Below, piece after piece: positions 47,469-63,888 of a stretch of 64,000 bases of DNA. Under the pieces are notes generated by a model, which did no database searches, was not told where the DNA came from, and saw only the letters and a list, made by a program, of their open reading frames with translations. The position numbers were made by a program, and so were the translations under genes. Source of the stretch: an uncultured Acetatifactor sp. GTDB taxonomy: Bacteria; Bacillota; Clostridia; Lachnospirales; Lachnospiraceae. Numbering within the stretch: position 1 is the first letter of the stretch; every line of letters starts with the position of its first letter. The stretch spans positions 1-64,000 of the forward strand of contig CANQPH010000004.1 of assembly GCA_947625675.1 (NCBI GenBank). Reading direction: 5' to 3'.

Positions 47469-48542
47469 CTACTCCGCCAGCAGCTGCGCTATCCTATCGG
47501 CTCCCCTGCCATCCACAAGTTTCCTCTCTTCTTTCTGGTAAGCTTCTCTCAGCGAATAATTTTCCCGCAGCTCCCTCACTTGTTCCCGGAGTCTGTCGAG
47601 TACCTTTACGGGTTCCCGGTGATAAGCGCCAACATATCCTCCGATTCCCTTTTCCCCCATATACTCCGCCAATCGCTCCTGGTTCTCCGCACAGGAAAAA
47701 CACACGAAGGGCAGTCCAACGGCTGCCAGCTCATAGACCGTGGTTCCGGCAGCTGTCACCGCTAGGTCGCATTTACGCATGAGAGAAGCCATGTCCTTCA
47801 CATCCACGTACAAATGAATTCGAGGACTCTTCCTTTCCCAATCTCCCCATTCCTGCCAACGGGTATGGAATCGGCCCAGCGCCACATGAAAATGACAATT
47901 TTCCCCAAAAAGCGTCTTGAGAAGCTGCGGAACAACATTTCCGGCGTTGCCGCCCCCTGCAGTCACCAGGATATCTTTCACCTCCGGCCGCAACACATAA
48001 GCGGCTTTCTGAAATTGGGATCGGACGGGCACATACCGGCTCCCCAAACAGTAACGAGTACCCCCTCCCTGATACAACCGCTGATATTTTTCTACAGAAG
48101 CGTAACAATTATAATTAATCACTCCGTCCACGGGAAAAGCGTGCTGTTCCATATCGTCCAGCAGCCAGACTCGGCCGTATCTCCTCAGATTTCTTAAGTA
48201 AACATCAGTTACAAAATAACTGTCCACCAGAATGCAGACTTCCGAGGTCTCCCGGCGCAGCATTGACTCCAACGCTGGAAGCTCCTCCTCCATATGTCGA
48301 TAATCCGTTCCCAGCGTCACGATCTGGAAACTTCCCCCGTCCTCCGGGGCGTCCTGCCCGGAAAGCCTGCTTCGCAGCAGCTCTTCCGAACGCTCTTCCG
48401 CAGTCAGAAAGCAGATTTTGTCCCGATTCCCTAACAGCCTGGCCAAGGCTTCCGCAATGGTAATGCACCGCATCAGGTGCCCCGCTCCGATCACTTCGTT
48501 TCCATCTGTGCGGATAAAAAAACGCTCCTGTTCATGTCTCAT
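47469..48542 (-). CDS. pseG: PseG, UDP-sugar hydrolase of pseudaminic acid synthesis
   Basis: Removes UDP from the 2,4-diacetamido-trideoxy-altrose intermediate, giving the free sugar for PseI. It has a GT-B-like fold: the N-terminal FFIRTDGNEVIGAGHLMRC carries the GXGHXXR site with the catalytic histidine, and the C-terminal half has LVTAGGGNAGNVVPQLL and AVTAAGTTVYELAAVGLPF for UDP binding. At 357 residues it is typical. Its start overlaps the end of pseI by 11 nt, so translation is coupled. It is in the leftward operon driven from 51665. Confidence 0.93.
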   Translation of the reverse strand: MRHEQERFFIRTDGNEVIGAGHLMRCITIAEALARLLGNRDKICFLTAEERSEELLRSRLSGQDAPEDGGSFQIVTLGTDYRHMEEELPALESMLRRETSEVCILVDSYFVTDVYLRNLRRYGRVWLLDDMEQHAFPVDGVINYNCYASVEKYQRLYQGGGTRYCLGSRYVPVRSQFQKAAYVLRPEVKDILVTAGGGNAGNVVPQLLKTLFGENCHFHVALGRFHTRWQEWGDWERKSPRIHLYVDVKDMASLMRKCDLAVTAAGTTVYELAAVGLPFVCFSCAENQERLAEYMGEKGIGGYVGAYHREPVKVLDRLREQVRELRENYSLREAYQKEERKLVDGRGADRIAQLLAE

Positions 48543-49596
48543 CGAAATCCACCAAATCCCAGCTCATGGGCGTGCCCATTTTGGCATCCCTGCGAATCTT
48601 CTTTCCAAGCAAATCATCATAATATTTCGTGTGCAGGCCGCAGGAAGGGCGCACGGAACGAAGATTTTCCGGGGTGAAGATCTCCCCGGCCTTCATGTCC
48701 CGGGCCACAAACAAGGATCTCGCATGAGCCCTGCTGGCGACCTGTTTGGGAGTCAGATCATAGGTCACTTTCCCAAGGGCCTTTTCCACGATGCGGATAT
48801 GATCCACCATTTCTTTAAATTCTTCCGGTTCCATGGAGAAAGCCGCATCCGCTCCCCCGTCCGAACGCCGCAGGGTAAGATGCTTCTCAACCACCTTTGC
48901 CCCCAGGGCCACCCCGGCCTGGGCCACCACCGTACCCAACGTATGATCCGACAAGCCCGTCAGGCATTGAAAGGTCTCCTTCATGGCCGGAATCGTATTC
49001 AGATTAATTTCTTCATAGGGGGAAGGATAAGCGGAAGTACATTTCAACAAAATCACATCTTCATTGCCTTCTTCCCGACAGGTTCGGAGCGCAAGCTCGA
49101 TGTCGGCCAAATAAGCGATACCCGTAGACATGATGATGGGCTTCCCCTTCCTCGCAATTTTGCGAAGGAAGGGAATGTCATTGATCTCAAAGCTTGCCAC
49201 CTTGTAGGCCGGCACATTCATTTCCTCCAGGAAGTCCACGCTGCTCAAGTCAAAGGGAGAAGAGAAAAAGATCAAGCCCATTTCTTCCGCAATCTTCTTC
49301 AGTCTGGGCTGCCATTCCCAAGGAGTATAAGCGGTCTCATATAGTTTATGAAGCGTGGTTCCGTCCCATATGGTTCCCTGGGTAATCTGAAAACAAGGAT
49401 CATCGCAGTCCAGCGTGATGGTGTCGGCCGTATAGGTCTGTATCTTGATCGCATCCGCCCCGGCTTTCCTAGCAGCTTCCATGATCGCCACCGCACGGTT
49501 GAAATCCATCCCATGATTGGCGGACATCTCTGCGACAATAAAAGTAGGAGAGTTTTCATCAATTATCCTGTTGCCAATTTTAATTTCCTTATTCAT
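48532..49596 (-). CDS. pseI: PseI, pseudaminic acid synthase
   Basis: Condenses phosphoenolpyruvate with 2,4-diacetamido-2,4,6-trideoxy-L-altrose to make pseudaminic acid. The NeuB-type TIM barrel has FIVAEMSANHGMDFNRAV, KIQTYTADTITLD, the Pse-type TIWDGTTLHKLYETAYTPWE, FFSSPFDLSSVDFLEEM and DGGADAAFSMEPEEFKEMV. A C-terminal SAF domain (ARSLFVARDMKAGEIFTPEN) completes it. The WDGTTLHKLYE and ADAAFSMEP blocks favour PseI over sialic or legionaminic acid synthases. It overlaps pseF by 8 nt and pseG by 11 nt. Confidence 0.95.
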   Translation of the reverse strand: MNKEIKIGNRIIDENSPTFIVAEMSANHGMDFNRAVAIMEAARKAGADAIKIQTYTADTITLDCDDPCFQITQGTIWDGTTLHKLYETAYTPWEWQPRLKKIAEEMGLIFFSSPFDLSSVDFLEEMNVPAYKVASFEINDIPFLRKIARKGKPIIMSTGIAYLADIELALRTCREEGNEDVILLKCTSAYPSPYEEINLNTIPAMKETFQCLTGLSDHTLGTVVAQAGVALGAKVVEKHLTLRRSDGGADAAFSMEPEEFKEMVDHIRIVEKALGKVTYDLTPKQVASRAHARSLFVARDMKAGEIFTPENLRSVRPSCGLHTKYYDDLLGKKIRRDAKMGTPMSWDLVDFDET

Positions 49597-50293
49597 CTTT
49601 AACCTCCCCCCTTTTCATAACTTGATATTTCAATTCGGCAATCTCCCAATCCGTCTGATTGTCAATATCCTGCACTTCCATTTCCGAGACCTCGAAGGGA
49701 AGTACATTTCCCGTCATCAATTCCCCATTCCTCCGATATGCCGCCGTATCAAAAAAATAGAACTGCCCTGCATCATGGTAATAAGGGACCAAATCCTGAG
49801 ATCTGCTGCTCAAATACTGAGGATGCCGAAAAATCAATCTCCCTTCTTCAATCGCCATGGCCCTTTGAGGGGGATAAGAGAACTTCACCACGGGAATCAA
49901 GGTATCCGCATCACTGCTTTCAAGCCTTTCCGCCGCCTTCCTGAGCTTCCGGGCCGTTACAAAGGGAGCCGTGGGATAAATACAAGCCGCCGTTGTAAAG
50001 CTTCGTCCCATTTCTTCATAACGCTCCAAGACCTCCCGAAGCACGTCATTGGTAGTTGCAAAATCGCTGGCCGTTCTCTCACTCCTGAAAAAAGGCACCT
50101 TCGCCCCATACTGCCGGGCAATGGCGGCGATCTCCTCGTCATCCGTGGAAACCATGACTTCTTCAAACAGTTCTGAGGCCAGCGCAGCCTCTATAGAATA
50201 AGCCAAAATAGGTTTGCCGCAAAATTCCTTGATGTTTTTCCTGGGAATCCTTTTGCTGCCTCCACGGGCCGTAATGATTGCAATCCTGGACAT
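49589..50293 (-). CDS. pseF: PseF, pseudaminic acid cytidylyltransferase
   Basis: Activates pseudaminic acid with CTP to CMP-pseudaminic acid, the donor for a transferase. The CMP-sugar synthetase start is RIAIITARGGSKRIPRKNIK, followed by PILAYSIEAALASELFEEV, VSTDDEEIAAIARQYGA, the FATTNDVLREVLE segment and DAGQFYFFDTAAYRRNG. At 235 residues it is typical of PseF. I start at 50293 (MSRIAI); the ATG at 50302 abuts its ribosome site. It lies 34 bp after the DUF4910 gene and overlaps pseI. Confidence 0.95.
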   Translation of the reverse strand: MSRIAIITARGGSKRIPRKNIKEFCGKPILAYSIEAALASELFEEVMVSTDDEEIAAIARQYGAKVPFFRSERTASDFATTNDVLREVLERYEEMGRSFTTAACIYPTAPFVTARKLRKAAERLESSDADTLIPVVKFSYPPQRAMAIEEGRLIFRHPQYLSSRSQDLVPYYHDAGQFYFFDTAAYRRNGELMTGNVLPFEVSEMEVQDIDNQTDWEIAELKYQVMKRGEVKDE

Positions 50294-50327
50294 AAACCCC
50301 ATCCCCTTCCGCCTTTATGACCAATGT

Positions 50328-51626
50328 TTATCTTTCAACACCCCATGGCTTGTCGGCAGCCTCCAGCAGACCTGCTTCGCACAACGTCTTTACCATGGGA
50401 ATCAACTCCTTCACGGGAACATGAATTCTGCTGCTGATCTGAATCAGATCTTCCGAACCATCCGAATAAGCGATGAGGTTCGTCATCTTCTTCACTTCCT
50501 CATAAATGCCCTTGCGGCTGACCGTGGGATAAAGACCTCTTTTTCCAAGCTGGGGTTCACATAAACAAGTGACCCGATAATAACGATTATACTCCAGCGC
50601 ACTGATCACTTGCTTCATCACTTCCAAAGAGTCTTCCAGACCCTGAGGCGATATCAAGGACATGTCATCCGCCGATGTATGATATTCGGGATATTCTCCA
50701 TATTTGGAACGGCAAAAATCGCATACCGGAAGATCCACGCCGGGCGCATTATACTGGCGCTCGTCAGACCCCCTCTCCAAATAGCTGTAAGTCAAATAAT
50801 CAGGATGGGCGAAACCGAGTACGTTCTTCATCACCCGATCCGTCAGCGTATCGCCCTTCCTAGTCTCCAGATAAGAATACGCCCTTTCATCTCCCACGCA
50901 GGTCAACACGAAACCTGCAATCACTCGCTTCTTCAGCGTCGAAAGATTTTTACTCAAATAAACGATGGAACCGATTGTCTCCGGAATAATGACAATGCGG
51001 TAAGAAAGTCTCCTGTCCAGACCCTTCAGCCATTTCACCAGCCAGGTGACCACCGCCGGGCCGGACAATTCATTGTTTGCCATGGACGGATGACAAATAT
51101 ACGTGGACAAAAGCACTTCTTTTTCAGATTCTCCTGGAAGCAGCAACTCCCCATAATTCAGAACGCCATCGAACAAGTCGCTGTCAATCACCATATGATA
51201 AATGCCGGGTTTCAAAGCGTCCCTTTGCTCTTTGGACATGCAGAAGGCATATCTCGGAGAATAATAGGAAGTCACATATGGAATCACCTCCGGCTGTCCT
51301 TCCTCCACCTTGATATACTGCAGCAATTCTTCCAGGCTGACATACCTGTCCACGGGCACGGAATATCCCATCACATGAAGATTGCTCTCCCGATAATCCA
51401 CGATCCGTTCTCCCCGTTCGTCCTCAATATAGCCTTGGCGGATGACCCATTCTTTCGGCACCGTCCAATCAAACGCCTGCGTCCCGCTGGGCACGGATTT
51501 TATTTCCAATTCAGGGATCTGCTCCTTGACCAATGCAAGGCTCTCTCTTACTCCCTCTCCAGTGAGACTCCTTCCGATGGGAAAAAGTCTTTCAGCAAAC
51601 GCATACATTTCTTCTCCAGAACTCAT
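50328..51626 (-). CDS. DUF4910/DUF2172 aminopeptidase-like protein with C-terminal winged-helix segment
   Basis: A 432-residue protein of the M28-like, aminopeptidase-fold DUF4910 family often found in glycan gene clusters. Markers are AERLFPIGRSLTGEGVRESL at the N-terminus, FDWTVPKEWVIRQGYI, STYICHPSMANNELSGPAV, SYLERGSDERQYNAPGVDLP and YPEYHTSADDMSLI. The histidine and acidic residues suggest a metal site. The last 80 residues resemble a winged helix (SRKGIYEEVKKMTNL). Its exact reaction is not known to me. GAGG precedes the ATG, and a near-perfect promoter makes it the first gene of the leftward pseF-pseI-pseG operon. Confidence 0.9.
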   Translation of the reverse strand: MSSGEEMYAFAERLFPIGRSLTGEGVRESLALVKEQIPELEIKSVPSGTQAFDWTVPKEWVIRQGYIEDERGERIVDYRESNLHVMGYSVPVDRYVSLEELLQYIKVEEGQPEVIPYVTSYYSPRYAFCMSKEQRDALKPGIYHMVIDSDLFDGVLNYGELLLPGESEKEVLLSTYICHPSMANNELSGPAVVTWLVKWLKGLDRRLSYRIVIIPETIGSIVYLSKNLSTLKKRVIAGFVLTCVGDERAYSYLETRKGDTLTDRVMKNVLGFAHPDYLTYSYLERGSDERQYNAPGVDLPVCDFCRSKYGEYPEYHTSADDMSLISPQGLEDSLEVMKQVISALEYNRYYRVTCLCEPQLGKRGLYPTVSRKGIYEEVKKMTNLIAYSDGSEDLIQISSRIHVPVKELIPMVKTLCEAGLLEAADKPWGVER

Positions 51627-51664
51627 GACATTTCCTCACTTTTCACAGTATCTTCAGCTAGAAT

Positions 51665-51693
51665 ATTATAGCCGAATTTCCCATGGTTTGCAA
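51665..51693 (-). promoter_or_regulatory. Promoter of the leftward DUF4910-pseF-pseI-pseG operon
   Basis: On the minus strand TTGCAA (51688-51693), a 17-bp spacer and a perfect TATAAT (51665-51670). Confidence 0.8.
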
Positions 51694-51742
51694 GGTTTAA
51701 TCAGTTTTTCCAAGAGATTTTGCAAAGTCTTCCAAAAAAGCA

Positions 51743-51771
51743 TTGCGAACCAAGAGATTGTTTGATAAGAT
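51743..51771 (+). promoter_or_regulatory. Promoter of the rightward glycan operon
   Basis: TTGCGA (51743-51748), a 17-bp spacer and TAAGAT (51766-51771), 49 bp from the divergent pse operon promoter. Confidence 0.5.
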
Positions 51772-51794
51772 AAATACAAATATCCTTTGAAAAC

Positions 51795-52925
51795 ATGGCT
51801 GGTAAAAACATGACAAAGTCCCCAAAAACAAAGCTTCAATGGGAAATAATATTGTATGCGGGCGCCATCATGCTGGCAGTCACAGAATTTGTACTGCATC
51901 GCATGATTCCTTTTATGATGGATGATCTATGGTATTCCACAAATCTGGTCACCGGCGAACGGCTTAGGAATCTTGCCGATATCGTGGAAAGCCAGAAATG
52001 GCACTTCCTAAATTGGGGAGGCCGGTGCATTACCCACGGAGTGCTGCAACTGACATTGATGTGTCCGGAATGGGTCGCTGACCTATGCAACCTGGCAATG
52101 ACCTTGCTGCTTGGAAAGCTCATTTGCCTGTTAGCAGGGCAAAAAGGTCCAATGTGGTTCCTAATGGCGTCATCTATGCTGATCAGTTTGAATGCCAACT
52201 GGAAAATGAGCATGTTCTGGCAGTCTGGAACGGTCAATTACGTTTATTCATCCGTATGGATACTGGTATTTTGGTATGTATATCTCAGCAAATTAAAAGA
52301 TACCGACCACCAATCATTGCCTTTGATTCACGTTTGGATTGTGCCGCTTGGAGTAATGGCCGGATGGAGTAATGAAAACGTAGGACCGGTATGCTTCCTG
52401 CTCGCCGCATTTACGGCATTTCATTTGTTTTTAAAAAAACAAAAAATACCGGTTTGGGTTATGGAGGGCGCTGTCAGTTCTCTGGCTGGAAGCGTCCTCG
52501 TGATCGCAGCTCCCGGCAACTTCGTCAGGAGTGCGCTGATCCCGAGAGGCAACCTGGGAGAGACGCTGTGGGAAAGATTTCTGTCCATGCTTACGGCTGG
52601 AGCAGATTTTCTATTTCCTTCGGCTCTATTACTGACGCTGACTCTGTTGATCCGCCTGGCCGTGGCCAACGGGAAGCTGAGCATTGCACAATGGGTGCTC
52701 CTGGCAGGAATCGTATTGTCCTTCGGCGCAATGGTGCTATCCCCGCATTACCCCGACAGGGCGACTTTCGGGACCATGGTATTATGCATCGTATTGCTTC
52801 AATCGATATGGAAGGATTTGCTGACATCCAATGAGAAATTAATGCCTTATGCCGCCGCATTGACTCTTCTGTCTTGGGTAAATGCAATGCTTATCATGAT
52901 GGAGGGATGCTGGCAGAACGTATGA
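51795..52925 (+). CDS. DUF6056-like polytopic membrane protein
   Basis: A 376-residue protein with about 9 membrane helices. After the first helix is MIPFMMDDLWYSTNLVTGE, then LNWGGRCITHGVLQLTL and SMFWQSGTVNYVYSSVWIL. The DDLWY and NWGGR blocks are what I associate with DUF6056, a GT-C-like family whose acidic pair lies in the first external loop. It may transfer a lipid-linked sugar to the growing glycan; this is inference. No clear ribosome site precedes the ATG at 51795, and the next ATG is at 51810. It starts the rightward operon and is AT-richer than the region left of 50 kb. Confidence 0.82.
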   Translation: MAGKNMTKSPKTKLQWEIILYAGAIMLAVTEFVLHRMIPFMMDDLWYSTNLVTGERLRNLADIVESQKWHFLNWGGRCITHGVLQLTLMCPEWVADLCNLAMTLLLGKLICLLAGQKGPMWFLMASSMLISLNANWKMSMFWQSGTVNYVYSSVWILVFWYVYLSKLKDTDHQSLPLIHVWIVPLGVMAGWSNENVGPVCFLLAAFTAFHLFLKKQKIPVWVMEGAVSSLAGSVLVIAAPGNFVRSALIPRGNLGETLWERFLSMLTAGADFLFPSALLLTLTLLIRLAVANGKLSIAQWVLLAGIVLSFGAMVLSPHYPDRATFGTMVLCIVLLQSIWKDLLTSNEKLMPYAAALTLLSWVNAMLIMMEGCWQNV

Positions 52926-52978
52926 CTACGTTTTTATGGCAATATAAGGATTGGCATATTTTTAGGAGGTTTCACTTT

Positions 52979-54049
52979 ATGAAAGAAAGAATTTATGTCT
53001 GCCACACTTATTATCACGTATATGTCACCTATCTGAAAGAATTAAACCTTCCGGCGGAAAAACACGGGCAGGCCACCCTGGTCCTGAGCAAACTGTCCAC
53101 CGATTTTGAAAATTTAAAAAGCAGGGTGGAAAGCACCGGACTTTTCGCTGAAGTAATAGAGTTCGATGAAAAAAGAGATGACTATTTTCCGGAGCTGCAT
53201 AAATGGCGCAAAGGGACGGGAAACATCATAGGGAATCTTTTGTACCGCATAAAATTTACCAGATTATTTGCGAAGCTGGAAGAGCCATTTATCCCGGTTG
53301 ATTTCAGAGAATACGGCGATATTTACGTATATTGTGACGCCGACCCGATTGGATATTATTTGAACCAGAAAAAAATACCTTATCATGCAATGGAAGACGG
53401 CCTTAACATCCTGGAGATCAAGGATGACGCAAGGTATGACAACAGAGGTCATTTTAATATCAAGGCCTTTTTCTCCAAAAAACTAAATCTGATATTCATC
53501 CAGAACGGTTACGGAAAATATTGTATTGACATGGAAGTGAATGATCTTTCCCTGATCAAATATCCCCGAAAAAACTATATTGAAGAATCTCGCCTGAAGT
53601 TGGTGGAAAGATTGACAGAAGCGGACAAGGAGATACTTCTCAAGGCCTTTATTCGAGACCTGGACAGGCTAAAGGAACAAATAGCGAATTGCAGTAAACT
53701 TCCAAATAAAATATTGATTTTGACAGATCCTTTATGCTCCCTCGAAACAAGGGAGAGAATCTTCCGGGACATCATAGCGATGTATGAACCGGAAGGCGCC
53801 ATTTTCATCAAGCCACATCCCAGGGACGTGTTGGATTATAGGAAGCTGTTCGCCGAATATCCGCAATTTGACGCCACCGTGCCCATGGAAATGCTGAATT
53901 TTTTCCCTGATCTGCATTTTTCAAAGGTAGTGGCGGTGTTTACCGAAGTAAAAGAAATTCATTTTGCAGACGAGGTAGTCCGGCTCGGTGCGGATTTCAT
54001 GGATCGTTATGAGGATCCTCTGATCCACAGACAGAACGAGCAAATCTGA
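52979..54049 (+). CDS. Sialyltransferase-like glycosyltransferase (GT52-like), candidate pseudaminyltransferase
   Basis: A 356-residue GT-B-type enzyme. It starts RIYVCHTYYHVYVTYLKEL, as GT52 and polysialyltransferase proteins do. The two hallmark motifs of bacterial sialyltransferases are present: Asp/Glu-Asp/Glu-Gly in YHAMEDGLNILE and His-Pro in IFIKPHPRDVLDY. The enzyme would use a CMP-nonulosonic acid. The only such donor made by genes in the window is CMP-pseudaminic acid (PseF), so I infer it adds pseudaminic acid to the glycan. AGGAGG lies 9 nt before the ATG at 52979. The PglK-like flippase gene follows after 65 bp. Confidence 0.82.
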   Translation: MKERIYVCHTYYHVYVTYLKELNLPAEKHGQATLVLSKLSTDFENLKSRVESTGLFAEVIEFDEKRDDYFPELHKWRKGTGNIIGNLLYRIKFTRLFAKLEEPFIPVDFREYGDIYVYCDADPIGYYLNQKKIPYHAMEDGLNILEIKDDARYDNRGHFNIKAFFSKKLNLIFIQNGYGKYCIDMEVNDLSLIKYPRKNYIEESRLKLVERLTEADKEILLKAFIRDLDRLKEQIANCSKLPNKILILTDPLCSLETRERIFRDIIAMYEPEGAIFIKPHPRDVLDYRKLFAEYPQFDATVPMEMLNFFPDLHFSKVVAVFTEVKEIHFADEVVRLGADFMDRYEDPLIHRQNEQI

Positions 54050-54114
54050 CTTCGAATCAGGGAAGCGCTCGCCCAGGCACCAACAGTCAAGGGGAAGGAC
54101 AATCGGTAGGAAAA

Positions 54115-55866
54115 ATGCAACAGATATTAAAAAAGCTAAATGTATTATTGGACAAAAAGCAGAAAGCCACGATGGTCTGGCTCGTTTTCCTAATGGGAAT
54201 CGGTGCGGCCCTGCAAACGGCGGGCGTAGGAATCATCGTTCCCGTGATCAGCACGATTCTTGACGACAATGCGATTGAAGAAAATGAAATCCTAAATTAT
54301 TTTTACCACCTCAGCGGCGTGGGAAGCAAGAAAAACTTTATGATCCTGATCATGGCAACCATGATCCTCGTGTTCGTTGTCAAAAACGCCTTTTTATATT
54401 TCCAGCAAAAGATGACGCTTTCCTTCGTATACACCAATCAATTCCGTACCTCGGAACGGATGATGCGCAACTACTTGAGAAGAGGCTATGAGTTTTATCT
54501 GAATGCGGATACTGCGGTAGTGCAGAGGAGCATAACTTCCGATGTAAACAATATGTATGCGTTGATCCTGGCCTTGCTTCAGTTATTGTCGGACGGAATC
54601 GTGTCTTTGTTCGTGGTTTCCTTCTGTTTCCTGCAAAATGGCGCCATGACGATTCTGATCGCCGCAGTCCTGATCGCATTGCTGTTCCTGATCAAAAAAG
54701 TGTTGAAACCGATCATGCATAAGGCCGGTGAGGACAATCAAAATTATTACAGCGGACTTTTCAAGTGGATATCTCAAACGGTACAGGGGATCAAAGAAGT
54801 GAAGATCACCTGCAAGGAGCAGTATTTCGTATCCGAATATGTGAAGTGCGGAAAAGGCTATGTGGAAGCGGTTCAAAAATACAGTCTCTACAACAACATC
54901 CCCAAACTGTTGATTGAAACCGTATGTGTCGCCTGCATGGCCGGCTACATGATATTCATGGTATTTACCGGCATGCCAACATCAGAAATGTTGGACTCCA
55001 TCACCACGTTTGCCGCTGCGGCTCTGGTCCTGCTTCCCAGTGTAAACCGAATCAATAATCAAATCAATTCCATCGCTTATTTTGAACCATTCTTCATGGG
55101 AGTCAGCGATAATCTGCAGGACGAAATCAGCGGAGAAAACGTGGACATGTCCTTCGCCGTAGATGCGCCCAAGCTTCCTGTCCAAAACAGGATTGAGCTG
55201 CGGGGCATCACCTATGCATATCCAAATACGGAAAAACTGATCTTTGATCATGCGGACCTGATGATCCCGATAGGCAAATCCGTCGGCATCGTCGGGATCT
55301 CGGGGGCCGGCAAAAGCACAGTGGTGGATATCATGCTGGGACTCCTGGTGGCGCAGGAGGGTGAAATCCTGGCAGACGGTAGGAACGTAAGAGAAAATTA
55401 CAGGGGCTGGCTTAAAAATATCGGGTATATCCCTCAGATGATCTTCATGCTGGATGACACGATTCGAAAAAACATTGCATTCGGCGTGCCGGAAGAACAA
55501 GTCGATGATGAGCGGTTATGGGAAGTGCTCAGGGAAGCTCAGCTGGATGAATTCGTGAAAGAGCTTCCGGAAGGATTGGAGACCGGCATCGGCGAACGGG
55601 GAATCCGCCTGTCAGGAGGCCAAAGACAGAGAATCGGTATTGCGAGAGCGCTGTATTATGATCCCGAGGTTTTGATCCTGGATGAAGCCACTTCCGCTTT
55701 GGACAACGACACGGAAGCGGCGATCATGGATTCCATCAACCGCCTCCATGGCCGCAAAACGCTGATTATTATCGCCCACAGGCTGCAGACCATCGAAAAG
55801 TGCGATATCGTATATCGGGTGGAAGACGGCAAGGCAAAGATTGAGAGGGGAACTTTAAACGCATGA
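54115..55866 (+). CDS. PglK-like ABC transporter (lipid-linked glycan flippase)
   Basis: A half-transporter with six membrane helices (residues 20-310) and a nucleotide-binding domain (355-580). The ATPase has Walker A VGISGAGKSTVVDIML, signature RLSGGQRQRIGIARAL, Walker B EVLILDEATSALD and HRLQTIEKCD. The region IKEVKITCKEQYFVSEY and overall layout resemble PglK, which flips undecaprenyl-pyrophosphate oligosaccharides across the membrane. GGTAGG precedes the ATG. The following GT2 gene starts inside its stop (ATGA). It gives the locus a second translocation route besides the Wzm/Wzt-like exporter. A peptide or drug exporter is less likely given the neighbours. Confidence 0.9.
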   Translation: MQQILKKLNVLLDKKQKATMVWLVFLMGIGAALQTAGVGIIVPVISTILDDNAIEENEILNYFYHLSGVGSKKNFMILIMATMILVFVVKNAFLYFQQKMTLSFVYTNQFRTSERMMRNYLRRGYEFYLNADTAVVQRSITSDVNNMYALILALLQLLSDGIVSLFVVSFCFLQNGAMTILIAAVLIALLFLIKKVLKPIMHKAGEDNQNYYSGLFKWISQTVQGIKEVKITCKEQYFVSEYVKCGKGYVEAVQKYSLYNNIPKLLIETVCVACMAGYMIFMVFTGMPTSEMLDSITTFAAAALVLLPSVNRINNQINSIAYFEPFFMGVSDNLQDEISGENVDMSFAVDAPKLPVQNRIELRGITYAYPNTEKLIFDHADLMIPIGKSVGIVGISGAGKSTVVDIMLGLLVAQEGEILADGRNVRENYRGWLKNIGYIPQMIFMLDDTIRKNIAFGVPEEQVDDERLWEVLREAQLDEFVKELPEGLETGIGERGIRLSGGQRQRIGIARALYYDPEVLILDEATSALDNDTEAAIMDSINRLHGRKTLIIIAHRLQTIEKCDIVYRVEDGKAKIERGTLNA

Positions 55867-56879
55867 AACTGAGCGTAATCGTACCCGTTTATAACATGGC
55901 GGAAGATGAAAAATTAAATTACTGTCTTGATTCCTTGGTAAACCAGACAATCTCAGATTATGAGATCCTGGCGGTAAATGACGCATCCACGGATCAATCC
56001 CTTGACATTTTGCGGGAATATGAAAAACGCTACCCGGACAAAATACACGTGATCACTTATGAGAAGAACAAGCGCCAGGGAGGTGCCAAAAACGAAGGAT
56101 TACATGCGTCAAAAGGAGAGTGGGTCGGTTTCATTGACAGTGATGACTGGGTAACGCCAGATTATTATGAAAAGCTGCTGAATAAAGCGGAAGAAACCGG
56201 CGCCGACATGGTTGGCTGTGACTATAGCCTGGTGGAAGGCCATACCATGGCCGTGGGAACCGTGGTACAAATCAATACGCCGGAGCAAACGGGAATTTTG
56301 AATTTTGAAAAACATAAACTGATGTTGATGCGGTCAGGCAGCATGGTGGTGAAAATATATCGCCGCAGCGTGATTGAAGAAAACCATTTAGAATTCCCCG
56401 AAGGGATTTTTTACGAAGATAATTGTGCGAGTCCTCTGTGGAGTTTATATTTCAAACATTTTGAACGAGTGGAGGAACCTTTGTATTATTATTATCAGCA
56501 TTCGGCTTCAACCGTCCATCACATCACGGAAGACAAATGCCGAGACCGTATGAAAGCAGCGATGCTCTTATACGAAGAATGTGAAAAGCGAGGGTTCTTA
56601 CAGCCGTATCATGCGGAACTGGAATATCGATTTACAGAATTATATTATGTGAATACCTTGTTTTCCTATTTTGATGGAGTCCAGTCCCCACGCCTTTCAT
56701 TTATCCGAGAACTGAGAGAAGGCTTGGTGGAACGGTTTCCGCATTTTAAAAATAATCAATATTATCTGGAGTGGACTCCGGAAATGGAAAAGAAACTGAT
56801 ATCCTTGCAAGCCCGTTCAGATGCCGCATTTTTATGGTATTATCGGTGGAAGAGGTGGATATGGCATTTCCATAAATAA
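55863..56879 (+). CDS. GT2 glycosyltransferase
   Basis: A 338-residue GT2 enzyme that starts KLSVIVPVYNMAEDEKLNYC. It has the donor site VGFIDSDDWVTPDYYEKLL, the conserved IFYEDNCASPLW in place of the usual catalytic ED motif, and a basic C-terminus (WKRWIWHFHK). Its ATG overlaps the flippase stop by 4 nt, so it is co-translated with it. It probably adds one sugar of the flipped oligosaccharide on the cytoplasmic face. Donor unknown. Confidence 0.93.
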   Translation: MKLSVIVPVYNMAEDEKLNYCLDSLVNQTISDYEILAVNDASTDQSLDILREYEKRYPDKIHVITYEKNKRQGGAKNEGLHASKGEWVGFIDSDDWVTPDYYEKLLNKAEETGADMVGCDYSLVEGHTMAVGTVVQINTPEQTGILNFEKHKLMLMRSGSMVVKIYRRSVIEENHLEFPEGIFYEDNCASPLWSLYFKHFERVEEPLYYYYQHSASTVHHITEDKCRDRMKAAMLLYEECEKRGFLQPYHAELEYRFTELYYVNTLFSYFDGVQSPRLSFIRELREGLVERFPHFKNNQYYLEWTPEMEKKLISLQARSDAAFLWYYRWKRWIWHFHK

Positions 56880-56927
56880 GAAGTACTGCAGGGGTATATA
56901 TCAAAAGCGGCGCTACGAGGTAACAGA

Positions 56928-57665
56928 ATGGAAAAATTCAAACCAAGGATTTCTGCCAAATGCGTTTCCTGGATGAATGGTGTCCTATATGTGGGTACCT
57001 TTTTAATAACGGGATATGCGGTGCACGACGTACAGACGGCCCAGGGAGTGGGACTGTATTTATCCTTTCTATGGATGCCTGGAAAAAGGGAGCCTTTTGA
57101 CATTTTAGTGGACATAGCTGCTCTTTCCGGCCTTTTTATTTTGATGGTCTTACCCTGTATTTTGTCAAAGCGGTGCGGAGCAGCATCATTGATGAGGTTT
57201 TTGGCAGCTTCCCTGGCAATGCTCCCTACCATAAGCCTGGCGGACCTTGTGCACATCTTCGACCCTCCCGGGATATTCGCAATTAGAGAGACTCTCACAA
57301 ACGGGGAGTGGCTATCTGCCTTCTGGGAGAGCATAAACTGTTTGAACCCCCTTCTCCAGATGAGTATCCCTTTTTTATGCATACTGTCAGCCGGACGACT
57401 GCTTTCCAGCACGGGAAAAGGAACAAACCGATCGCTTTGGATTGTTGCGGTGATACTTGTCCCCGGAGTTTTTCTTTTCCAAAGATTGGCGGTCCCATTG
57501 ACATTTGTGATAATGTACTTGATTCTGGTAGCATGTTTTAATATTTGGGAAGGCCTTTATGACGCTTATCCCAAGGTCAAAATCTGGGGAAACATTTTAT
57601 TTGCGGGTTTTTGGTTAAGGGCCATCTATCGGCTAATCGTGCTGATGGAAGTTTATCATTTATAA
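56928..57665 (+). CDS. Hypothetical six-helix membrane protein
   Basis: A 245-residue protein with about six membrane helices (for example LYVGTFLITGYAV, LFILMVLPCIL and LWIVAVILVPGVFLF). I recognise no family or motif. GAGGTAA lies before the ATG, and it sits between a GT2 gene and pseC in the rightward operon, with 16 bp to pseC. It is AT-rich like its upstream neighbours and unlike pseC. The helix pattern differs from Wzx and from GT-C proteins, so I do not assign a role. Confidence 0.78.
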   Translation: MEKFKPRISAKCVSWMNGVLYVGTFLITGYAVHDVQTAQGVGLYLSFLWMPGKREPFDILVDIAALSGLFILMVLPCILSKRCGAASLMRFLAASLAMLPTISLADLVHIFDPPGIFAIRETLTNGEWLSAFWESINCLNPLLQMSIPFLCILSAGRLLSSTGKGTNRSLWIVAVILVPGVFLFQRLAVPLTFVIMYLILVACFNIWEGLYDAYPKVKIWGNILFAGFWLRAIYRLIVLMEVYHL

Positions 57666-57681
57666 GAAAGGATAGGATCTT

Positions 57682-58878
57682 ATGGAAAAACTAGCGATTC
57701 TGGGAGGCGACCCCGTGCGGAAGACCCCCCTCAGTTACGGCAGACAATATATCGATGATTCCGACATTGCGGCTGTGGTGGAAACCTTGAAAAGCGATTT
57801 CCTCACCTGCGGCCCCAAGATCGCCGAACTGGAACAGGCCCTGTGCCAAGTCACGGGTGCCAGATACTGCGTGGCTGTAAACAGCGGCACCGCCGCCCTG
57901 CACATCGCCGCCCTGGCGGCGGGCATCGGCCCCGGGGACGAGGTCATCACCACTCCCATCACCTTTGCGGCATCCGCCAACTGCGCCCTGTACTGCGGCG
58001 GGCGTCCCGTTTTTGCGGACATCAATCCCGAGACCTACAACATTGATCCCAAGGCCATCCGCAGGTGCATCACCCCCAGGACCAAGGCCGTCGTGGCCGT
58101 GGACTTCACCGGCCAGGCCGTACAGCTGGACGAGATCCGCACCATCTGTGAAAAACATAACTTGACCCTCATCGAAGATGCGGCTCATTCCATCGGCACC
58201 AAATACCGGGGAAGGCCGGTGGGAAGCATCGCCGACATGACCGCCTTCAGCTTCCACCCGGTGAAGACCGTCACCGCCGGAGAGGGCGGCGCCGTCACCA
58301 CCAACGACGAAAAGCTTTACGAGAAACTGCTCCTGGCCCGCACCCACGGCATCACCAGGGACCGGAGTCTGATGGTCCATCCCACCGACGACCCCTGGTA
58401 CAACGAACAGATTTCCCTGGGCTACAACTATCGCATGACCGATTTTCAGGCGGCCCTGCTGATCAGCCAGCTGAAAAAGCTGGAGCTTTTCTCCGCCCGT
58501 CGGAAAGCCATCGTGGCCAAGTATGACGAAGCTTTTTCCCAGATTCCCGAGATCCAGGTACAGAAGGAGATCCCGGAATCCGACACCACCAGGCACTTGT
58601 ACATCCTGCGGCTGCGCCTGGACATGCTGAACTGTACCAGAAGGGAATTTTTCGACGCCCTCCACGAAGAGAATATCTATTCCCAGGTACATTATCTGCC
58701 GGTATACTGGCATTCCTATTATGAAAAACTAGGGTATCAAAAAGGCCTCTGCCCCAACGCAGAAGCCTATTACGGCGAATGTATGAGTCTTCCCCTCTAC
58801 TACTCCCTGACAGACGGAGACGTGGAAGACGTGATCCATGGGGTCAAGAAGCTGGTGAATCATTATCGGAAAAATTGA
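57682..58878 (+). CDS. pseC: PseC, UDP-4-amino-4,6-dideoxy-altrose aminotransferase
   Basis: A PLP aminotransferase of the DegT family that aminates the PseB product at C4. Markers are SDFLTCGPKIAELEQALCQ, VAVNSGTAALHIAALAAG, VITTPITFAASANCALYCGG, the aspartate in IEDAAHSIGTKYRG and the PLP lysine in AFSFHPVKTVTAGEGGAV. The GPKI and HPVKTVTAGEGGA blocks are typical of PseC. At 398 residues it is full length. GGATAGGA lies before the ATG. Its DNA is far more GC-rich than the genes just upstream, and its last 35 bp overlap the convergent GT2 gene. Confidence 0.95.
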   Translation: MEKLAILGGDPVRKTPLSYGRQYIDDSDIAAVVETLKSDFLTCGPKIAELEQALCQVTGARYCVAVNSGTAALHIAALAAGIGPGDEVITTPITFAASANCALYCGGRPVFADINPETYNIDPKAIRRCITPRTKAVVAVDFTGQAVQLDEIRTICEKHNLTLIEDAAHSIGTKYRGRPVGSIADMTAFSFHPVKTVTAGEGGAVTTNDEKLYEKLLLARTHGITRDRSLMVHPTDDPWYNEQISLGYNYRMTDFQAALLISQLKKLELFSARRKAIVAKYDEAFSQIPEIQVQKEIPESDTTRHLYILRLRLDMLNCTRREFFDALHEENIYSQVHYLPVYWHSYYEKLGYQKGLCPNAEAYYGECMSLPLYYSLTDGDVEDVIHGVKKLVNHYRKN

Positions 58879-59794
58879 TTTTTTCCTTGATGACGTATTG
58901 AGGCGAATTGTTCATGCTGATGTAGATCCTGCCGATGTACTCGCCGATGAGGCCCAGCATCAGCATGATCATGCCGCCAAAGAACACCACGGCCGACATC
59001 AGGGAACTGAATCCCATGGGCACCAGTGGATTGATGAACCGCTTCACGATGGTGTATAGACCATAAAGGAAGCCCATTATGGCGCATACGCCTCCGATTA
59101 TGGTTGCAATCCGCAGCGGCTTCACGGAAAAGGCGGTAAATCCGTTGATCCAAAGTCCTAACAGCTTTTTGAAGGTATATCCCGAGGTTCCTTCCTGGCG
59201 ATCCCTGTGATTCACCACCACGTTGGTAATGTTCTTCGTGGTGCGCAGAACCAGACCGATCACGTAAGGATAAGAGTTCTCATAACGAATCATGTCTTCC
59301 ACTACGAATCTTCTCACCGCAAAATAGCTGGAAACATACAGGGAAGCCGGCTTATCCAGCATCACTCGGGCCATCAGGTCGTTAGCCCTGCTGCCCAGAT
59401 TGCGAAACGCAGAATGATGCTTGTGCTCATATTTGGCATAGACCGCATCATAACCTTCCTCCAGCTTCTCCAGAAGCTTTCCCACCTCGTTGGCCGGAGT
59501 CTGACCGTCATCGTCCAGACAGACCACGTAATCCCCGGCGGCATGACGTAAACCCGCCATGAGGGCCGCATGCTGACCGAAATTCCTGGCGAAATGGATT
59601 CCCCGTATCCGTGGGTTCTCCCGACACAGCTTCCGAATTGTACCCAGCGTATCGTCCGGCGAGCCATCATTTACCAGCACGATCTCATACTCGTACCTTC
59701 CAATTGCCTTCATCGTCTCCTGGATTTCCGCCACCACGGATGGAAGAGTGCGTTCCGACCGATAACAAGGAATCACAAAAGTAATCTTCTTCAT
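58844..59794 (-). CDS. GtrB-like GT2 polyprenyl-phosphate glycosyltransferase
   Basis: A 316-residue GT2 enzyme with two C-terminal helices (about 228-253 and 263-290, MSAVVFFGGMIMLMLGLIGEYIG). It starts ITFVIPCYRSERTLPSVVAE, with the donor site VVCLDDDGQTPANEVGKLL and the RNFGQHAALMAGLRHA block. This is the layout of ArnC/GtrB proteins, which load a sugar onto undecaprenyl phosphate. AGGGGG precedes the ATG. It ends inside the convergent pseC gene (35-bp overlap) and lies 10 bp after pseH. Confidence 0.94.
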   Translation of the reverse strand: MKKITFVIPCYRSERTLPSVVAEIQETMKAIGRYEYEIVLVNDGSPDDTLGTIRKLCRENPRIRGIHFARNFGQHAALMAGLRHAAGDYVVCLDDDGQTPANEVGKLLEKLEEGYDAVYAKYEHKHHSAFRNLGSRANDLMARVMLDKPASLYVSSYFAVRRFVVEDMIRYENSYPYVIGLVLRTTKNITNVVVNHRDRQEGTSGYTFKKLLGLWINGFTAFSVKPLRIATIIGGVCAIMGFLYGLYTIVKRFINPLVPMGFSSLMSAVVFFGGMIMLMLGLIGEYIGRIYISMNNSPQYVIKEKINFSDNDSPAS

Positions 59795-59804
59795 CCTAAC
59801 CCCC

Positions 59805-60317
59805 TCATCCTTGCTGGTTCAAAGCCGCCATCAATATGATATCCCGAAACTTCCCATTTACAAATACGTCGTCCCGGAGATAAGCTTCTTTTTGAAATCC
59901 AGCTTTCTCATAGCTCCTGATCGCTCGGAAATTATCCGCATAAACCCGCAGAAAAACCCGATGCAGCTGCAATTCCTTAAAACAATGACGCAGCATCAAT
60001 TTCGCCGCTTCCGTTCCAATTCCCTTCCCCCTGGCGGAAGACTCCCCGATGAAGATACCATATTCTCCCTTTTGATTCTGTCTATCGATATCCCGAACGT
60101 TAACGGAACCCACCGGCAGGGAATCTTCCCCCACGCAGATCATCATCTGAACCACTTTTCCCGTATCCACCATCGTCCTGATCCAATTCAAATGTCCCTC
60201 CCGAGTAAACGGGTCCTGACAAATGAAGTACTTCCGCACTTCCTCCTGGTTTCTCCAGGAGACGATCAAATCTGTATCTTCCACCGTCATGGGGCGTAAG
60301 GTGACTTTTTCATTCAT
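59805..60317 (-). CDS. pseH: PseH-like GNAT N-acetyltransferase of pseudaminic acid synthesis
   Basis: A 170-residue GNAT enzyme that would acetylate the 4-amino group of the PseC product with acetyl-CoA. It starts VTLRPMTVEDTDLIVSWRN, has the acetyl-CoA loop SSARGKGIGTEAAKLML and ends with the HRVFLRVYADNFRAIRSYEK and GFQKEAYLRD blocks, as PseH and related RimJ-like enzymes do. The sequence alone could fit another amino-sugar acetyltransferase, including one acting on the RffA product. Its place between pseB and pseC, with the other Pse genes present, favours PseH. Confidence 0.85.
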   Translation of the reverse strand: MNEKVTLRPMTVEDTDLIVSWRNQEEVRKYFICQDPFTREGHLNWIRTMVDTGKVVQMMICVGEDSLPVGSVNVRDIDRQNQKGEYGIFIGESSARGKGIGTEAAKLMLRHCFKELQLHRVFLRVYADNFRAIRSYEKAGFQKEAYLRDDVFVNGKFRDIILMAALNQQG

Positions 60318-60336
60318 ATGCTTCTCCTGTATTCCT

Positions 60337-61305
60337 TTATCGTACCACCCGTTCCGCCTCCGGCATCCCGGCCATCAACTGACGCATGTCCCTGCCCACA
60401 CATTTCAGGCGGTACTCATAATCTCTCCTGTCCTTGGCCGCCATGACCTCCAGAATCATCCCCGAGAAAAAGGACAAGAGCCCAGCCATGACGATAAACC
60501 CGCATACGATCAAAGTAGGGAACCGCAGAACCAATCCCGTTTCCAGATAATCCACGAGTACCGGTAAAAAGAAGACAGCCGCAGCAAATATCATGAGCAA
60601 ACCCAGCAGGCCGAAGAAACGCAGCGGTTTATAATTTTTGTACAGCTGTATCATTTTATGGATGACCTTGATCCCATCCCGATAAGTATTCAGCTTGGAC
60701 TGGCTTCCCTCCGGTCGGTCTCTGAAATTCACCACCACGTTGTCCACCTGCATATTGTAGTTCACGGCATGGATGGTCATCTCCGTCTCAATTTCAAACC
60801 CTTGGGAAAACACCGGAAAGGTTTTGACGAATTCATAGCCAAAAGCCCGGTATCCCGTCATAATATCCTTGATGTCCGAATGAAACAGCGTGTTGATCCC
60901 TGTCCGCATCAGGCTGTTGCCGAAATTGTGGAAAGGTCTCTTATTCTCTGTAAAATAGGTGGAAGAGAGCCGATCTCCCACCACCATATCCGCATTGTGA
61001 CAGAGCACCAGATCCACCATCTGTCTGGCGCAATCCAAAGGATAAGTGTCATCCCCGTCGATCATCAGATAGCACACTGCATCAATCTCCCGGAACATCC
61101 GCCGCACCACGTTCCCCTTGCCCTGCTTGTACTCATGCCGCAGCATGACGCCCGCCTCCTCGGCGATCTGAGCGGTGCGGTCCGTGGAATTATTGTCATA
61201 AACATAGATCACAGCCTCCGGCAGAGCTTCTCTGACGTCCTGAATGACCTTTCCTATGGTTTTTTCTTCATTATAACAAGGGATCAATACCGCTATCTTG
61301 TCCAT
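60337..61305 (-). CDS. GT2 polyprenyl-phosphate glycosyltransferase with C-terminal helices
   Basis: A 322-residue GT2 enzyme of the dolichol-phosphate-mannose-synthase-like group. It begins KIAVLIPCYNEEKTIGKVI, with donor site YLMIDGDDTYPLDCARQM, then GINTLFHSDIKDIMTGYRAF and FEIETEMTIHAVNYNMQV. Two helices follow (about 230-250 and 262-285). It likely loads a sugar onto undecaprenyl phosphate. GGAGG lies 6 nt before the ATG at 61305; a longer upstream frame covers only the pseB-side gap. It lies 74 bp after pseB and 19 bp before pseH. Confidence 0.94.
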   Translation of the reverse strand: MDKIAVLIPCYNEEKTIGKVIQDVREALPEAVIYVYDNNSTDRTAQIAEEAGVMLRHEYKQGKGNVVRRMFREIDAVCYLMIDGDDTYPLDCARQMVDLVLCHNADMVVGDRLSSTYFTENKRPFHNFGNSLMRTGINTLFHSDIKDIMTGYRAFGYEFVKTFPVFSQGFEIETEMTIHAVNYNMQVDNVVVNFRDRPEGSQSKLNTYRDGIKVIHKMIQLYKNYKPLRFFGLLGLLMIFAAAVFFLPVLVDYLETGLVLRFPTLIVCGFIVMAGLLSFFSGMILEVMAAKDRRDYEYRLKCVGRDMRQLMAGMPEAERVVR

Positions 61306-61379
61306 GCGTTCCTCCTCACGGCTCAGTCTGCCGTTTTCCCGCCGCTTTATCGTCCAAGGACCATCAATCGACCCGACTC

Positions 61380-62375
61380 CTACTTCTCCAGCTCCAGTTT
61401 CCGAAGCCGTTCCCGGATCTGCTCCACGTCCAGCCACTCCGTGTTGTTATCCGAGCTGTAAGAAAACCTCTCCGGAACCTTCTTCCCCGTCGGGACTGCT
61501 CTCCTGTGTTCGCTCCAAACCATCTGAGGGTACACGATATAATGCTTTTCATATTCATAGGTATTGGGAGAGTCCTCCGCCGTCACCATGATCTCATGCA
61601 GTTTCTCTCCCTCCCGGATCCCGATCTCCGGCTTCCCGCAGCCGGGCAGCATGGCCTCCGCCAGATCCGTGACCTTGAAGGACGGAATTTTGGAAATAAA
61701 AGTTTCCCCGCCCACAGATTCCTCCAAAGCCTTGATGACCAGCTCCACCCCCTGCTCCAAACTGATCCAAAATCTCGTCATTCTGTAATCCGTAATGGGA
61801 AGCTCCGTCCCGCCATTCTTAATAATGTTATGAAAAAAGGGAATGATGGAGCCCCGGCTGCCCGCCACATTGCCATACCGAACAATGGAAAAACAGACAT
61901 CCTTGCTGCCGACATAAGCATTGGCGGCAATGAAGAGCTTGTCCGATACCAGCTTGGTCCCTCCGTACAGATTCACGGGATTCACCGCCTTGTCCGTGGA
62001 CAAGGCCACCACCTTCTTCACTCCGGTATCCAGCACCGCATCGATCACGTTCTGGGCCCCGCCGATATTGGTCTTGATGGCCTCCGCCGGATTATATTCA
62101 CAGGCGGGTACCTGTTTCAGGGCCGCCGCATGCACTACATAATCCACACCCTCCAAAGCCCTCTTGAGGCGTTCCTTGTCCCTCACGTCCCCGATAAAAA
62201 AGCGAAGCCTGTTATCATATTTTTTAAACTCAGTCCTCATCATGAACTGCTTGAATTCATCCCGAGAATAGATGATGATTTTCTTCGGATCATAATGTTC
62301 GAAAACATATTTGGTAAACGCCTTCCCAAAGCTTCCGGTTCCGCCCGTCACCAAAATGGATTTATCATTTAACAT
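61380..62375 (-). CDS. pseB: PseB, UDP-GlcNAc 4,6-dehydratase (inverting)
   Basis: First enzyme of pseudaminic acid synthesis: dehydrates UDP-GlcNAc and inverts C5. The Rossmann loop is SILVTGGTGSFGKAFTKYV, followed by IIYSRDEFKQFMM, VVHAAALKQVPACEYNPAEA, the catalytic region ALSTDKAVNPVNLYGGTKLV and RYGNVAGSRGSIIPFFH. These blocks match PseB/FlaA1 rather than the larger PglF. At 331 residues it is full length. TGAGAGGAG precedes the ATG. It has its own promoter directly after the upstream membrane gene. Substrate UDP-GlcNAc depends on GlmS upstream in metabolism. Confidence 0.96.
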   Translation of the reverse strand: MLNDKSILVTGGTGSFGKAFTKYVFEHYDPKKIIIYSRDEFKQFMMRTEFKKYDNRLRFFIGDVRDKERLKRALEGVDYVVHAAALKQVPACEYNPAEAIKTNIGGAQNVIDAVLDTGVKKVVALSTDKAVNPVNLYGGTKLVSDKLFIAANAYVGSKDVCFSIVRYGNVAGSRGSIIPFFHNIIKNGGTELPITDYRMTRFWISLEQGVELVIKALEESVGGETFISKIPSFKVTDLAEAMLPGCGKPEIGIREGEKLHEIMVTAEDSPNTYEYEKHYIVYPQMVWSEHRRAVPTGKKVPERFSYSSDNNTEWLDVEQIRERLRKLELEK

Positions 62376-63783: not shown

Positions 63784-63797
63784 GATTCCTCGCATTC

Positions 63798-63888
63798 TGC
63801 CGCCGATTAGGCGGCATTTAAATTTAAGGGACTTTGTGCGGCAGCACAAATCCCGAGATTGGAAATAGCCGAACGGCTATTTCCAATC
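63798..63888. repeat. Triple-hairpin intergenic element
   Basis: Three perfect hairpins in a row: TGCCGCC/GGCGGCA (63798-63816), TTTGTGC/GCACAAA (63833-63850) and a 14-bp GATTGGAAATAGCC/GGCTATTTCCAATC (63857-63888). The order and the GATTG-led long stem resemble the element at 34045-34221. None is followed by a clear T-run. Confidence 0.7.

What the first reader, a model, noticed from the sequence alone, without database searches (positions are those of the whole stretch)
47469..62375. All six pseudaminic acid enzymes in one locus of a Gram-positive anaerobe, split over three transcription units
PseB (61380), PseC (57682), PseH (59805), PseG (47469), PseI (48532) and PseF (49589) are all recognisable with intact key motifs. 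They lie in a leftward pseF-I-G operon, a leftward pseB...pseH operon and a rightward operon ending in pseC. No flagellar genes are seen, so the product is more likely destined for a surface glycan than for flagellin. A complete Pse route next to glycan export genes in an apparent Lachnospiraceae is notable because the pathway is best known from Campylobacter and Helicobacter.
Basis: partly seen in the sequence, partly recalled or inferred. Interest (0 to 1): 0.75.

Follow-up and report, generated by a model that had tools for sequence, protein, structure and literature searches.

The report
Pseudaminic acid surface-sugar gene cluster
A gut bacterium of the Lachnospiraceae type, without detectable flagellin, carries genes to make the sialic-acid-like sugar pseudaminic acid and very probably attach it to a surface polysaccharide; the pathway is common in its relatives, but a neighbouring gene that may do the attaching looks like an undescribed kind of transferase.

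The parts
61380..62375 (-). pseB, UDP-GlcNAc 4,6-dehydratase (5-inverting)
   Evidence: TIGR03589 536.9 bits, cut-off 407.75; 2gn4 379 bits
60337..61305 (-). AglJ-like GT2 glycosyltransferase
   Evidence: PF00535; TIGR04182 210.7 bits, under its cut-off 325
59805..60317 (-). GNAT acetyltransferase, possible PseH; its relatives usually lie beside an ArnC-like gene
   Evidence: TIGR03585 94.3 bits, cut-off 93.1; neighbours; tree
58844..59794 (-). ArnC-like GT2 (polyprenyl-phosphate type)
   Evidence: NF007986 190.1 bits, under its cut-off 529; homologues in 85 of 299 genomes at E <= 1e-60
57682..58878 (+). pseC, aminotransferase
   Evidence: TIGR03588 482.8 bits, cut-off 423.5; in the PDB 4lc3 249 bits, 2fn6 240 bits
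56928..57665 (+). protein of 245 aa without Pfam match
55863..56879 (+). GT2 glycosyltransferase
   Evidence: PF00535
54115..55866 (+). ABC exporter, PglK/MsbA-like, possible flippase of the lipid-linked glycan
   Evidence: NF050066 343 bits, under its cut-off 1000; PF00005 and PF00664
52979..54049 (+). GT52/GT38-like protein, candidate CMP-pseudaminic acid transferase
   Evidence: PF07922 and PF07388 over cut-off; EDG and KxHP invariant; fold; co-occurrence with PseI. ORF listed from TTG 52874; homologues begin near the ATG at 52979
51795..52925 (+). DUF6056 protein
   Evidence: PF19528
50328..51626 (-). DUF4910/DUF2172/HTH_47 protein, possible sugar-modifying enzyme
   Evidence: PF16254, PF09940, PF16221; PMC4000134
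49589..50302 (-). pseF, CMP-pseudaminic acid synthetase
   Evidence: TIGR03584 288.5 bits, cut-off 205.7
48532..49596 (-). pseI, pseudaminic acid synthase
   Evidence: TIGR03586 486.5 bits, cut-off 340.25; 8h2c 325 bits
47469..48542 (-). pseG, UDP-sugar hydrolase
   Evidence: TIGR03590 163.4 bits, cut-off 153.55; 3hbm 39.6 bits
45694..47433 (-). GtrII-type membrane glucosyltransferase
   Evidence: PF14264
44692..45669 (-). GT2, PgfS-like
   Evidence: NF047588 279.1 bits, under its cut-off 500
43456..44685 (-). acyltransferase 3 family protein
   Evidence: PF01757
40340..41500 (-). WecE-type dTDP-sugar aminotransferase
   Evidence: NF008687 642.7 bits, cut-off 375

Best explanation
The locus makes CMP-pseudaminic acid, or a close 7-N-acyl variant, from UDP-GlcNAc through PseB, PseC, an N-acyltransferase, PseG, PseI and PseF. 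The GT52/GT38-like protein at 52979-54049 then transfers the sugar from CMP to a lipid-linked glycan in the cytoplasm, the PglK-like ABC protein beside it flips that glycan, and membrane transferases finish a wall or surface polysaccharide. Shown here: five of the enzymes by curated models, no detectable flagellin or Maf, the sialyltransferase-like motifs and predicted fold of the transferase, and its co-occurrence and linkage with Pse genes. Inferred: the sugar itself, the donor and acceptor, the flipping step, and whether the 59805 GNAT does the PseH step (about even odds).
For: Equivalog cut-offs and nearest solved structures. No flagellin and no Maf in the genome. Transferase: PF07922 34.2/26.1 and PF07388 27.8/23.3 bits over cut-off; EDG and KxHP invariant in 20 homologues and KPHP in 36; the first 23 rows of the fold comparison are sialyl- or polysialyltransferases. 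35 of 38 genomes with it have PseI over cut-off, against 32 of 261 without it (p 1.4e-23); among 96 WecE-positive genomes 31 of 32 against 9 of 64. In 67 pseI-centred pieces of 66 other genomes it occurs in 14, Maf in 12, flagellin in 7, and never together with either.
Against: The EDG and HP motifs do not prove the role: SpsB of Bacillus subtilis has such motifs and was not needed for legionaminic acid transfer (PMC7439481, passages). 32 of 67 PseI-positive genomes lack the transferase and 8 have both it and Maf. G031 (99% complete) has it without a PseI match, although pseB- and pseC-like genes lie near it. Genomes were not corrected for shared descent. No Neu or Leg specificity test was possible. 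The PseH step is unsecured. The part of the model that holds the EDG loop is poorly predicted.
Confidence: 0.68

Rival explanations
1. The 59805 GNAT is not PseH but acetylates the WecE-type amino sugar that the ArnC-like protein loads onto undecaprenyl phosphate. The PseH step is then done by something else (the DUF4910 protein or an unlinked enzyme) or is absent, so that the product is a 7-amino or otherwise acylated nonulosonic acid.
For: Relatives lie beside the ArnC-like gene in 21 of 40 fetched pieces, 15 of these with the WecE-type gene. Eight PseI-positive genomes hold another, pse-linked GNAT as well. It occurs in three genomes without PseI over cut-off. Its presence does not depend on another acyl enzyme being absent (9 of 12 against 20 of 23). 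Das et al. suggest transacylation of an amino sugar for DUF4910 (PMC4000134, section read).
Against: TIGR03585 is just over cut-off. The sister of the window GNAT in the tree lies in front of pseF in L181 (100/90, bootstrap not settled). 29 of 32 genomes with this GNAT are PseI-positive. No other GNAT of the genome was listed near its score.
Confidence: 0.48
2. Another glycosyltransferase of the locus transfers Pse, and the GT52-like protein adds a different CMP-activated or other sugar of the same glycan.
For: Several other glycosyltransferases lie in the locus. SpsB is a precedent for a motif-bearing neighbour that was not needed for transfer.
Against: In the Pfam scans of 38 window proteins only this one matched a sialyl- or polysialyltransferase family, and PseI tracks it even within WecE-positive genomes. 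Only one strong NeuB-family synthase was found in the genome.
Confidence: 0.22
3. The pathway makes pseudaminic acid for flagellin, as in Campylobacter and Clostridium.
For: Pse loci with Maf and flagellin occur in relatives.
Against: No flagellin and no Maf match in the 94%-complete genome.
Confidence: 0.04

Closest known systems
CMP-Pse pathway of Helicobacter pylori and Campylobacter jejuni (PseB,C,H,G,I,F)
   Same: The same enzyme set by curated models, PseH only marginally
   Different: Genes split over three units, PseH uncertain, no flagellin or Maf in the genome
Flagellar Pse loci of Clostridium (PMC13317340, abstract and passages)
   Same: Pse genes in Gram-positive anaerobes
   Different: Those lie in the flagellar locus with Maf transferases; here a surface-glycan setting with a GT52-like transferase
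GT52, GT38 and GT80 sialyltransferases
   Same: Motifs, Pfam matches (GT52 and GT38 models) and predicted GT-B fold
   Different: Low identity (8-12% to the structures aligned in rows 1-23) and, by context, Pse rather than Neu5Ac as likely donor sugar
KpsS1 of Acinetobacter baumannii, GT118 (PMC12887879, passages)
   Same: A Pse transferase of a surface polysaccharide; the paper describes a (K/R)XHP motif for CMP-sugar transferases
   Different: KpsS-related by that paper; the window protein matched only PF07922 and PF07388 in Pfam
Clostridium acetobutylicum CA_C2186-2199 (PMC4000134, section read)
   Same: DUF4910 gene with nonulosonate synthase and nucleotidyltransferase genes; ATP-grasp and HAD-acyltransferase genes of the kinds seen in relatives' Pse loci
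   Different: That operon has a Maf-type protein; the window has the GT52-like one

Membership tests
CMP-Pse pathway | PseB, PseC, PseG, PseI, PseF equivalogs | tested here: met
   all five over curated cut-offs
CMP-Pse pathway | PseH N-acetyltransferase | tested here: inconclusive
   94.3 against 93.1 bits; neighbourhood points to another pathway, tree to Pse; the model is a weak discriminator here
CMP-Pse pathway | CMP-Pse made | not testable with these tools
   needs biochemistry
Flagellar Pse glycosylation | flagellin gene in the genome | tested here: not met
   PF00669 0 matches; genome 94% complete
Flagellar Pse glycosylation | Maf transferase | tested here: not met
   PF01973 0 matches
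GT52/GT38-like nonulosonate transferase (52979-54049) | Pfam model of the family over its gathering score | tested here: met
   PF07922 34.2/26.1 and PF07388 27.8/23.3 bits; 17 and 12 of 20 homologues match at E <= 0.001
GT52/GT38-like nonulosonate transferase (52979-54049) | D/E-D/E-G and (K/R)xHP motifs | tested here: met
   EDG 139-141 and K278, H280, P281 invariant in 20 homologues; motifs from PMC2169525 and PMC12887879
GT52/GT38-like nonulosonate transferase (52979-54049) | GT-B fold of bacterial CMP-sialyltransferases | tested here: met
GT52/GT38-like nonulosonate transferase (52979-54049) | transfer of a CMP-activated nonulosonic acid | not testable with these tools
   needs assay
GT118 (KpsS1) | sequence kinship with KpsS/KpsC | tested here: inconclusive
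   only PF07922 and PF07388 match at E <= 1 in Pfam; no direct comparison made

The most novel reading that the evidence does not exclude
The protein at 52979-54049 founds a pseudaminyltransferase family of its own, centred on Lachnospiraceae and used for non-flagellar glycans, next to Maf and GT118. In these loci the N-acylation slot is exchanged between species (FkbH with GNAT, ATP-grasp ligase, recruited GNAT, DUF4910), so that different species would carry different N-acyl forms of Pse on their surface.
Probability: 0.5. Interest if true: 0.62.

Novelty: new variant of a known kind. Interest (0 to 1): 0.45.

Why it matters
In the papers seen here the Pse transferases discussed are Maf proteins and KpsS1. 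A gut-commensal family of proteins that seems to place Pse on a surface glycan would give a new enzyme to test and a bacterial sialic-acid mimic to look for in gut Lachnospiraceae. Acetatifactor muris DSM 23669 has such a locus (L230: transferase, ABC, GT2, pseF, FkbH, GNAT, pseI, pseG, GtrII), so the idea can be tested in a named strain. The pathway alone would not be news.

Tried and rejected
PseB as PglF or FnlA, and PseI as NeuB: rejected by cut-offs and PDB scores. In the family scan no PseI hit falls between 328.3 and 427.2 bits, so the window's 486.4 lies in a separate upper group. In the class sample four hits lie at 360.8-364.5 bits and one split frame sums to 414.4, so the gap is not absolute. 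No tree with named LegI or NeuB references was built.

TIGR03585 as a test for PseH was dropped: it is over cut-off in only 10 of 299 genomes while PseI is in 67, and it matches 282 of 299 at E <= 0.001. The idea that the 59805 GNAT fills in only where no other acyl enzyme exists was not supported (9 of 12 against 20 of 23, Fisher p 0.39). ATP-grasp as the window genome's acyl enzyme: one weak match only, E 2.1e-6, 26.8 bits, in a 1117-aa frame. A sequence search of the PDB with the GT52-like protein found no sialyltransferase at E <= 1, only short chance-like matches.

Rows dropped before counts. 49 genomes matched the GT52-like protein at E <= 0.001; 11 of them, with E from 1.1e-32 to 9.5e-4, were left out; none of the 11 has PseI over cut-off, so with them the ratio is 35 of 49. 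Of the 76 genomes over the PF01973 cut-off, 19 whose best match is under 88 bits were not counted as Maf. The genome sets were typed by hand. The GNAT class was assigned by hand, and GNATs below the printed list (about 38 bits) could be missed. The 40 pieces were picked by GNAT score, with two picked for the transferase. The 67 pseI pieces come from 66 genomes (L080 is a second one of G276). Maf is in 14 of these pieces by clustering and in 12 by a direct match. One search missed ATP-grasp genes that one search had found, so I use the recount. In one search the FkbH label was given by locus and so also fell on two ArnC-linked rows (L183_3063, L187_5484).

Literature. 'pseudaminic acid' with 'Lachnospiraceae' gave 9 papers, seen as a listing, with passages of two. 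'Acetatifactor' with 'pseudaminic' gave 0. 'pseudaminyltransferase' gave 3. That this transferase is undescribed rests on these and on the listings, in an open-licence library only. Recalled and from no call: the names of the pathway intermediates and the usual catalytic residues of PseB and PglF.

Families not listed there are not excluded.
Full report
What is there. Against NCBIfam equivalog models PseB, PseC, PseF and PseI pass with room to spare, PseG by 10 bits and PseH by 1.2 bits. The competing models FnlA, LegB, NeuB, LegC-family and ArnB stay below their cut-offs. The nearest solved structures of PseB and PseI are the UDP-GlcNAc C6-dehydratase 2gn4 and a pseudaminic acid synthase. PseC is a near tie in the PDB between an ArnB-like chain (249 bits) and 2fn6 (240 bits); the equivalog model decides for PseC. 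PseG has one PDB match, a UDP-sugar hydrolase, at 39.6 bits.

Layout. Leftward from 62375: pseB, an AglJ-like GT2, the GNAT and an ArnC-like GT2. Rightward from 51795: DUF6056, the GT52-like protein, an ABC exporter, a GT2, a protein without Pfam match and pseC. Leftward from 51626: DUF4910, pseF, pseI, pseG, then GtrII, GT2, an acyltransferase, a large protein without Pfam match, and a WecE-type aminotransferase. pseF and pseI overlap by 8 bases, pseI and pseG by 11, and pseC and the ArnC-like gene converge with a 35-base overlap. Promoter-like patterns occur between 51626 and 51795, but they are consensus matches only. The rest of the window holds Wzm/Wzt-type ABC genes, RmlA, RmlB, a WcaJ-type sugar transferase, an LCP protein and further glycosyltransferases, which fits a wall or surface polysaccharide (inference).

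Host and destination. The genome (3.10 Mb, 101 contigs, 94% complete) has no Flagellin_N match and no PF01973/Maf match. Its only strong NeuB-family protein is the window's PseI; a second match has 35 bits. The nearest named homologue of the GT52-like protein is from an uncultured Acetatifactor (81% identity), and most of the 80 loci kept carry Lachnospiraceae or Acetatifactor titles, so the host is most likely of that kind (inference).

How common. TIGR03586 (PseI) is over cut-off in 67 of 299 genomes drawn from the same family, the window's own included, and in 13 of 99 drawn from the class. The pathway is therefore ordinary in these bacteria. A 2026 paper reports Pse flagellar loci as widespread in Clostridium (PMC13317340; abstract and passages).

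Link to Pse. Homologues with E < 1e-70 occur in 38 of 299 family genomes, and 35 of the 38 have PseI over cut-off, against 32 of the other 261 (Fisher p 1.4e-23). The exceptions are G006 (67% complete), G064 (61%) and G031 (99%); in G031 matches to pseB, pseC and pseF lie within about 6 kb of it, close to the contig's start. A shared WecE-type module does not explain the link: among 96 WecE-positive genomes 31 of 32 transferase-positive and 9 of 64 transferase-negative ones have PseI. In 67 pseI-centred pieces from 66 other genomes the transferase is present in 14, Maf in 12 and flagellin in 7, never the transferase with either. By genome, of 67 PseI-positive ones 35 have this transferase, 30 have Maf, 8 have both and 10 have neither. 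That set was chosen by likeness to the window, so it is not a random sample. In the class sample the 2 of 99 genomes that match are both of the family, so 0 of the 96 others, while 11 of those 96 have PseI over cut-off. The family draw is about one genome a genus, but shared descent was not corrected for.

The PseH question. In the tree the 59805 GNAT lies apart from the clade of FkbH-linked GNATs of other Pse loci. Its relatives lie beside the ArnC-like gene in 21 of 40 fetched pieces, 15 of them with the WecE-type gene. Same-genus G022 holds both a GNAT of this kind (contig C54) and a different one between FkbH and pseI; in the window that pseF-pseI interval is closed. On the other side, the MAG locus L181, whose gene order is close to the window's, has a second GNAT of this kind directly before pseF, and that copy is the sister of the window GNAT (100/90; the bootstrap had not settled). 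29 of 32 genomes with this GNAT are PseI-positive, and all 29 have the transferase. Its presence does not depend on the absence of another acyl enzyme. I leave PseH at about even odds.

The acylation slot. Among 56 loci with pseF, pseI and the transferase in view (the window included), 21 have FkbH with a GNAT near pseF-pseI, 9 an ATP-grasp gene, 3 a GNAT, 3 (window included) DUF4910 without a GNAT near, 1 both, and 19 none of these. Das et al. noted DUF4910 with nonulosonate, ATP-grasp and HAD-acyltransferase genes and suggested transacylation of an amino sugar (PMC4000134, section read).

Mechanism proposed. UDP-GlcNAc is converted to CMP-Pse; the GT52-like enzyme adds it to a lipid-linked glycan; the PglK-like ABC protein flips it; membrane transferases complete it. 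The enzymes of the first part are identified by curated models, PseH excepted; the rest is inferred from fold, motifs and neighbours.

Verdict. The candidate pseudaminyltransferase is the part worth an experiment.

Noticed in passing
L038:7016-9454; L230; 31 of 80 loci have an FkbH match: An FkbH/HAD-IIIC protein and a GNAT lie between pseF and pseI in many relatives, which hints at an unusual acyl group on the sugar.
   Followed up: partly
23 pseI neighbourhoods (cluster 1, such as L085:7204-8427) and 4 more (cluster 16): ATP-grasp ligase genes are common in Lachnospiraceae Pse loci, where they may attach an acid or amino acid to the amino sugar.
   Followed up: partly
L219:17476-18990, L234:12813-14408, L246:15640-17160; L052:6231-7817, L054:3947-5476: Fused open frames: PseI with a GNAT in three loci and GNAT with PseG in two.
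   Followed up: no
window 50328-51626: DUF4910 protein heads the pseF-I-G unit; it also lies near the transferase in L207, L212, L234, L241 and L245.
   Followed up: partly
window 62446-63849, 41534-43459, 56928-57665: Proteins of the locus without any Pfam match at E <= 0.001.
   Followed up: no
window 50001-58000: G+C falls to 0.45-0.48 against 0.51-0.57 between 40 and 50 kb, which may mark a separately acquired block.
   Followed up: no
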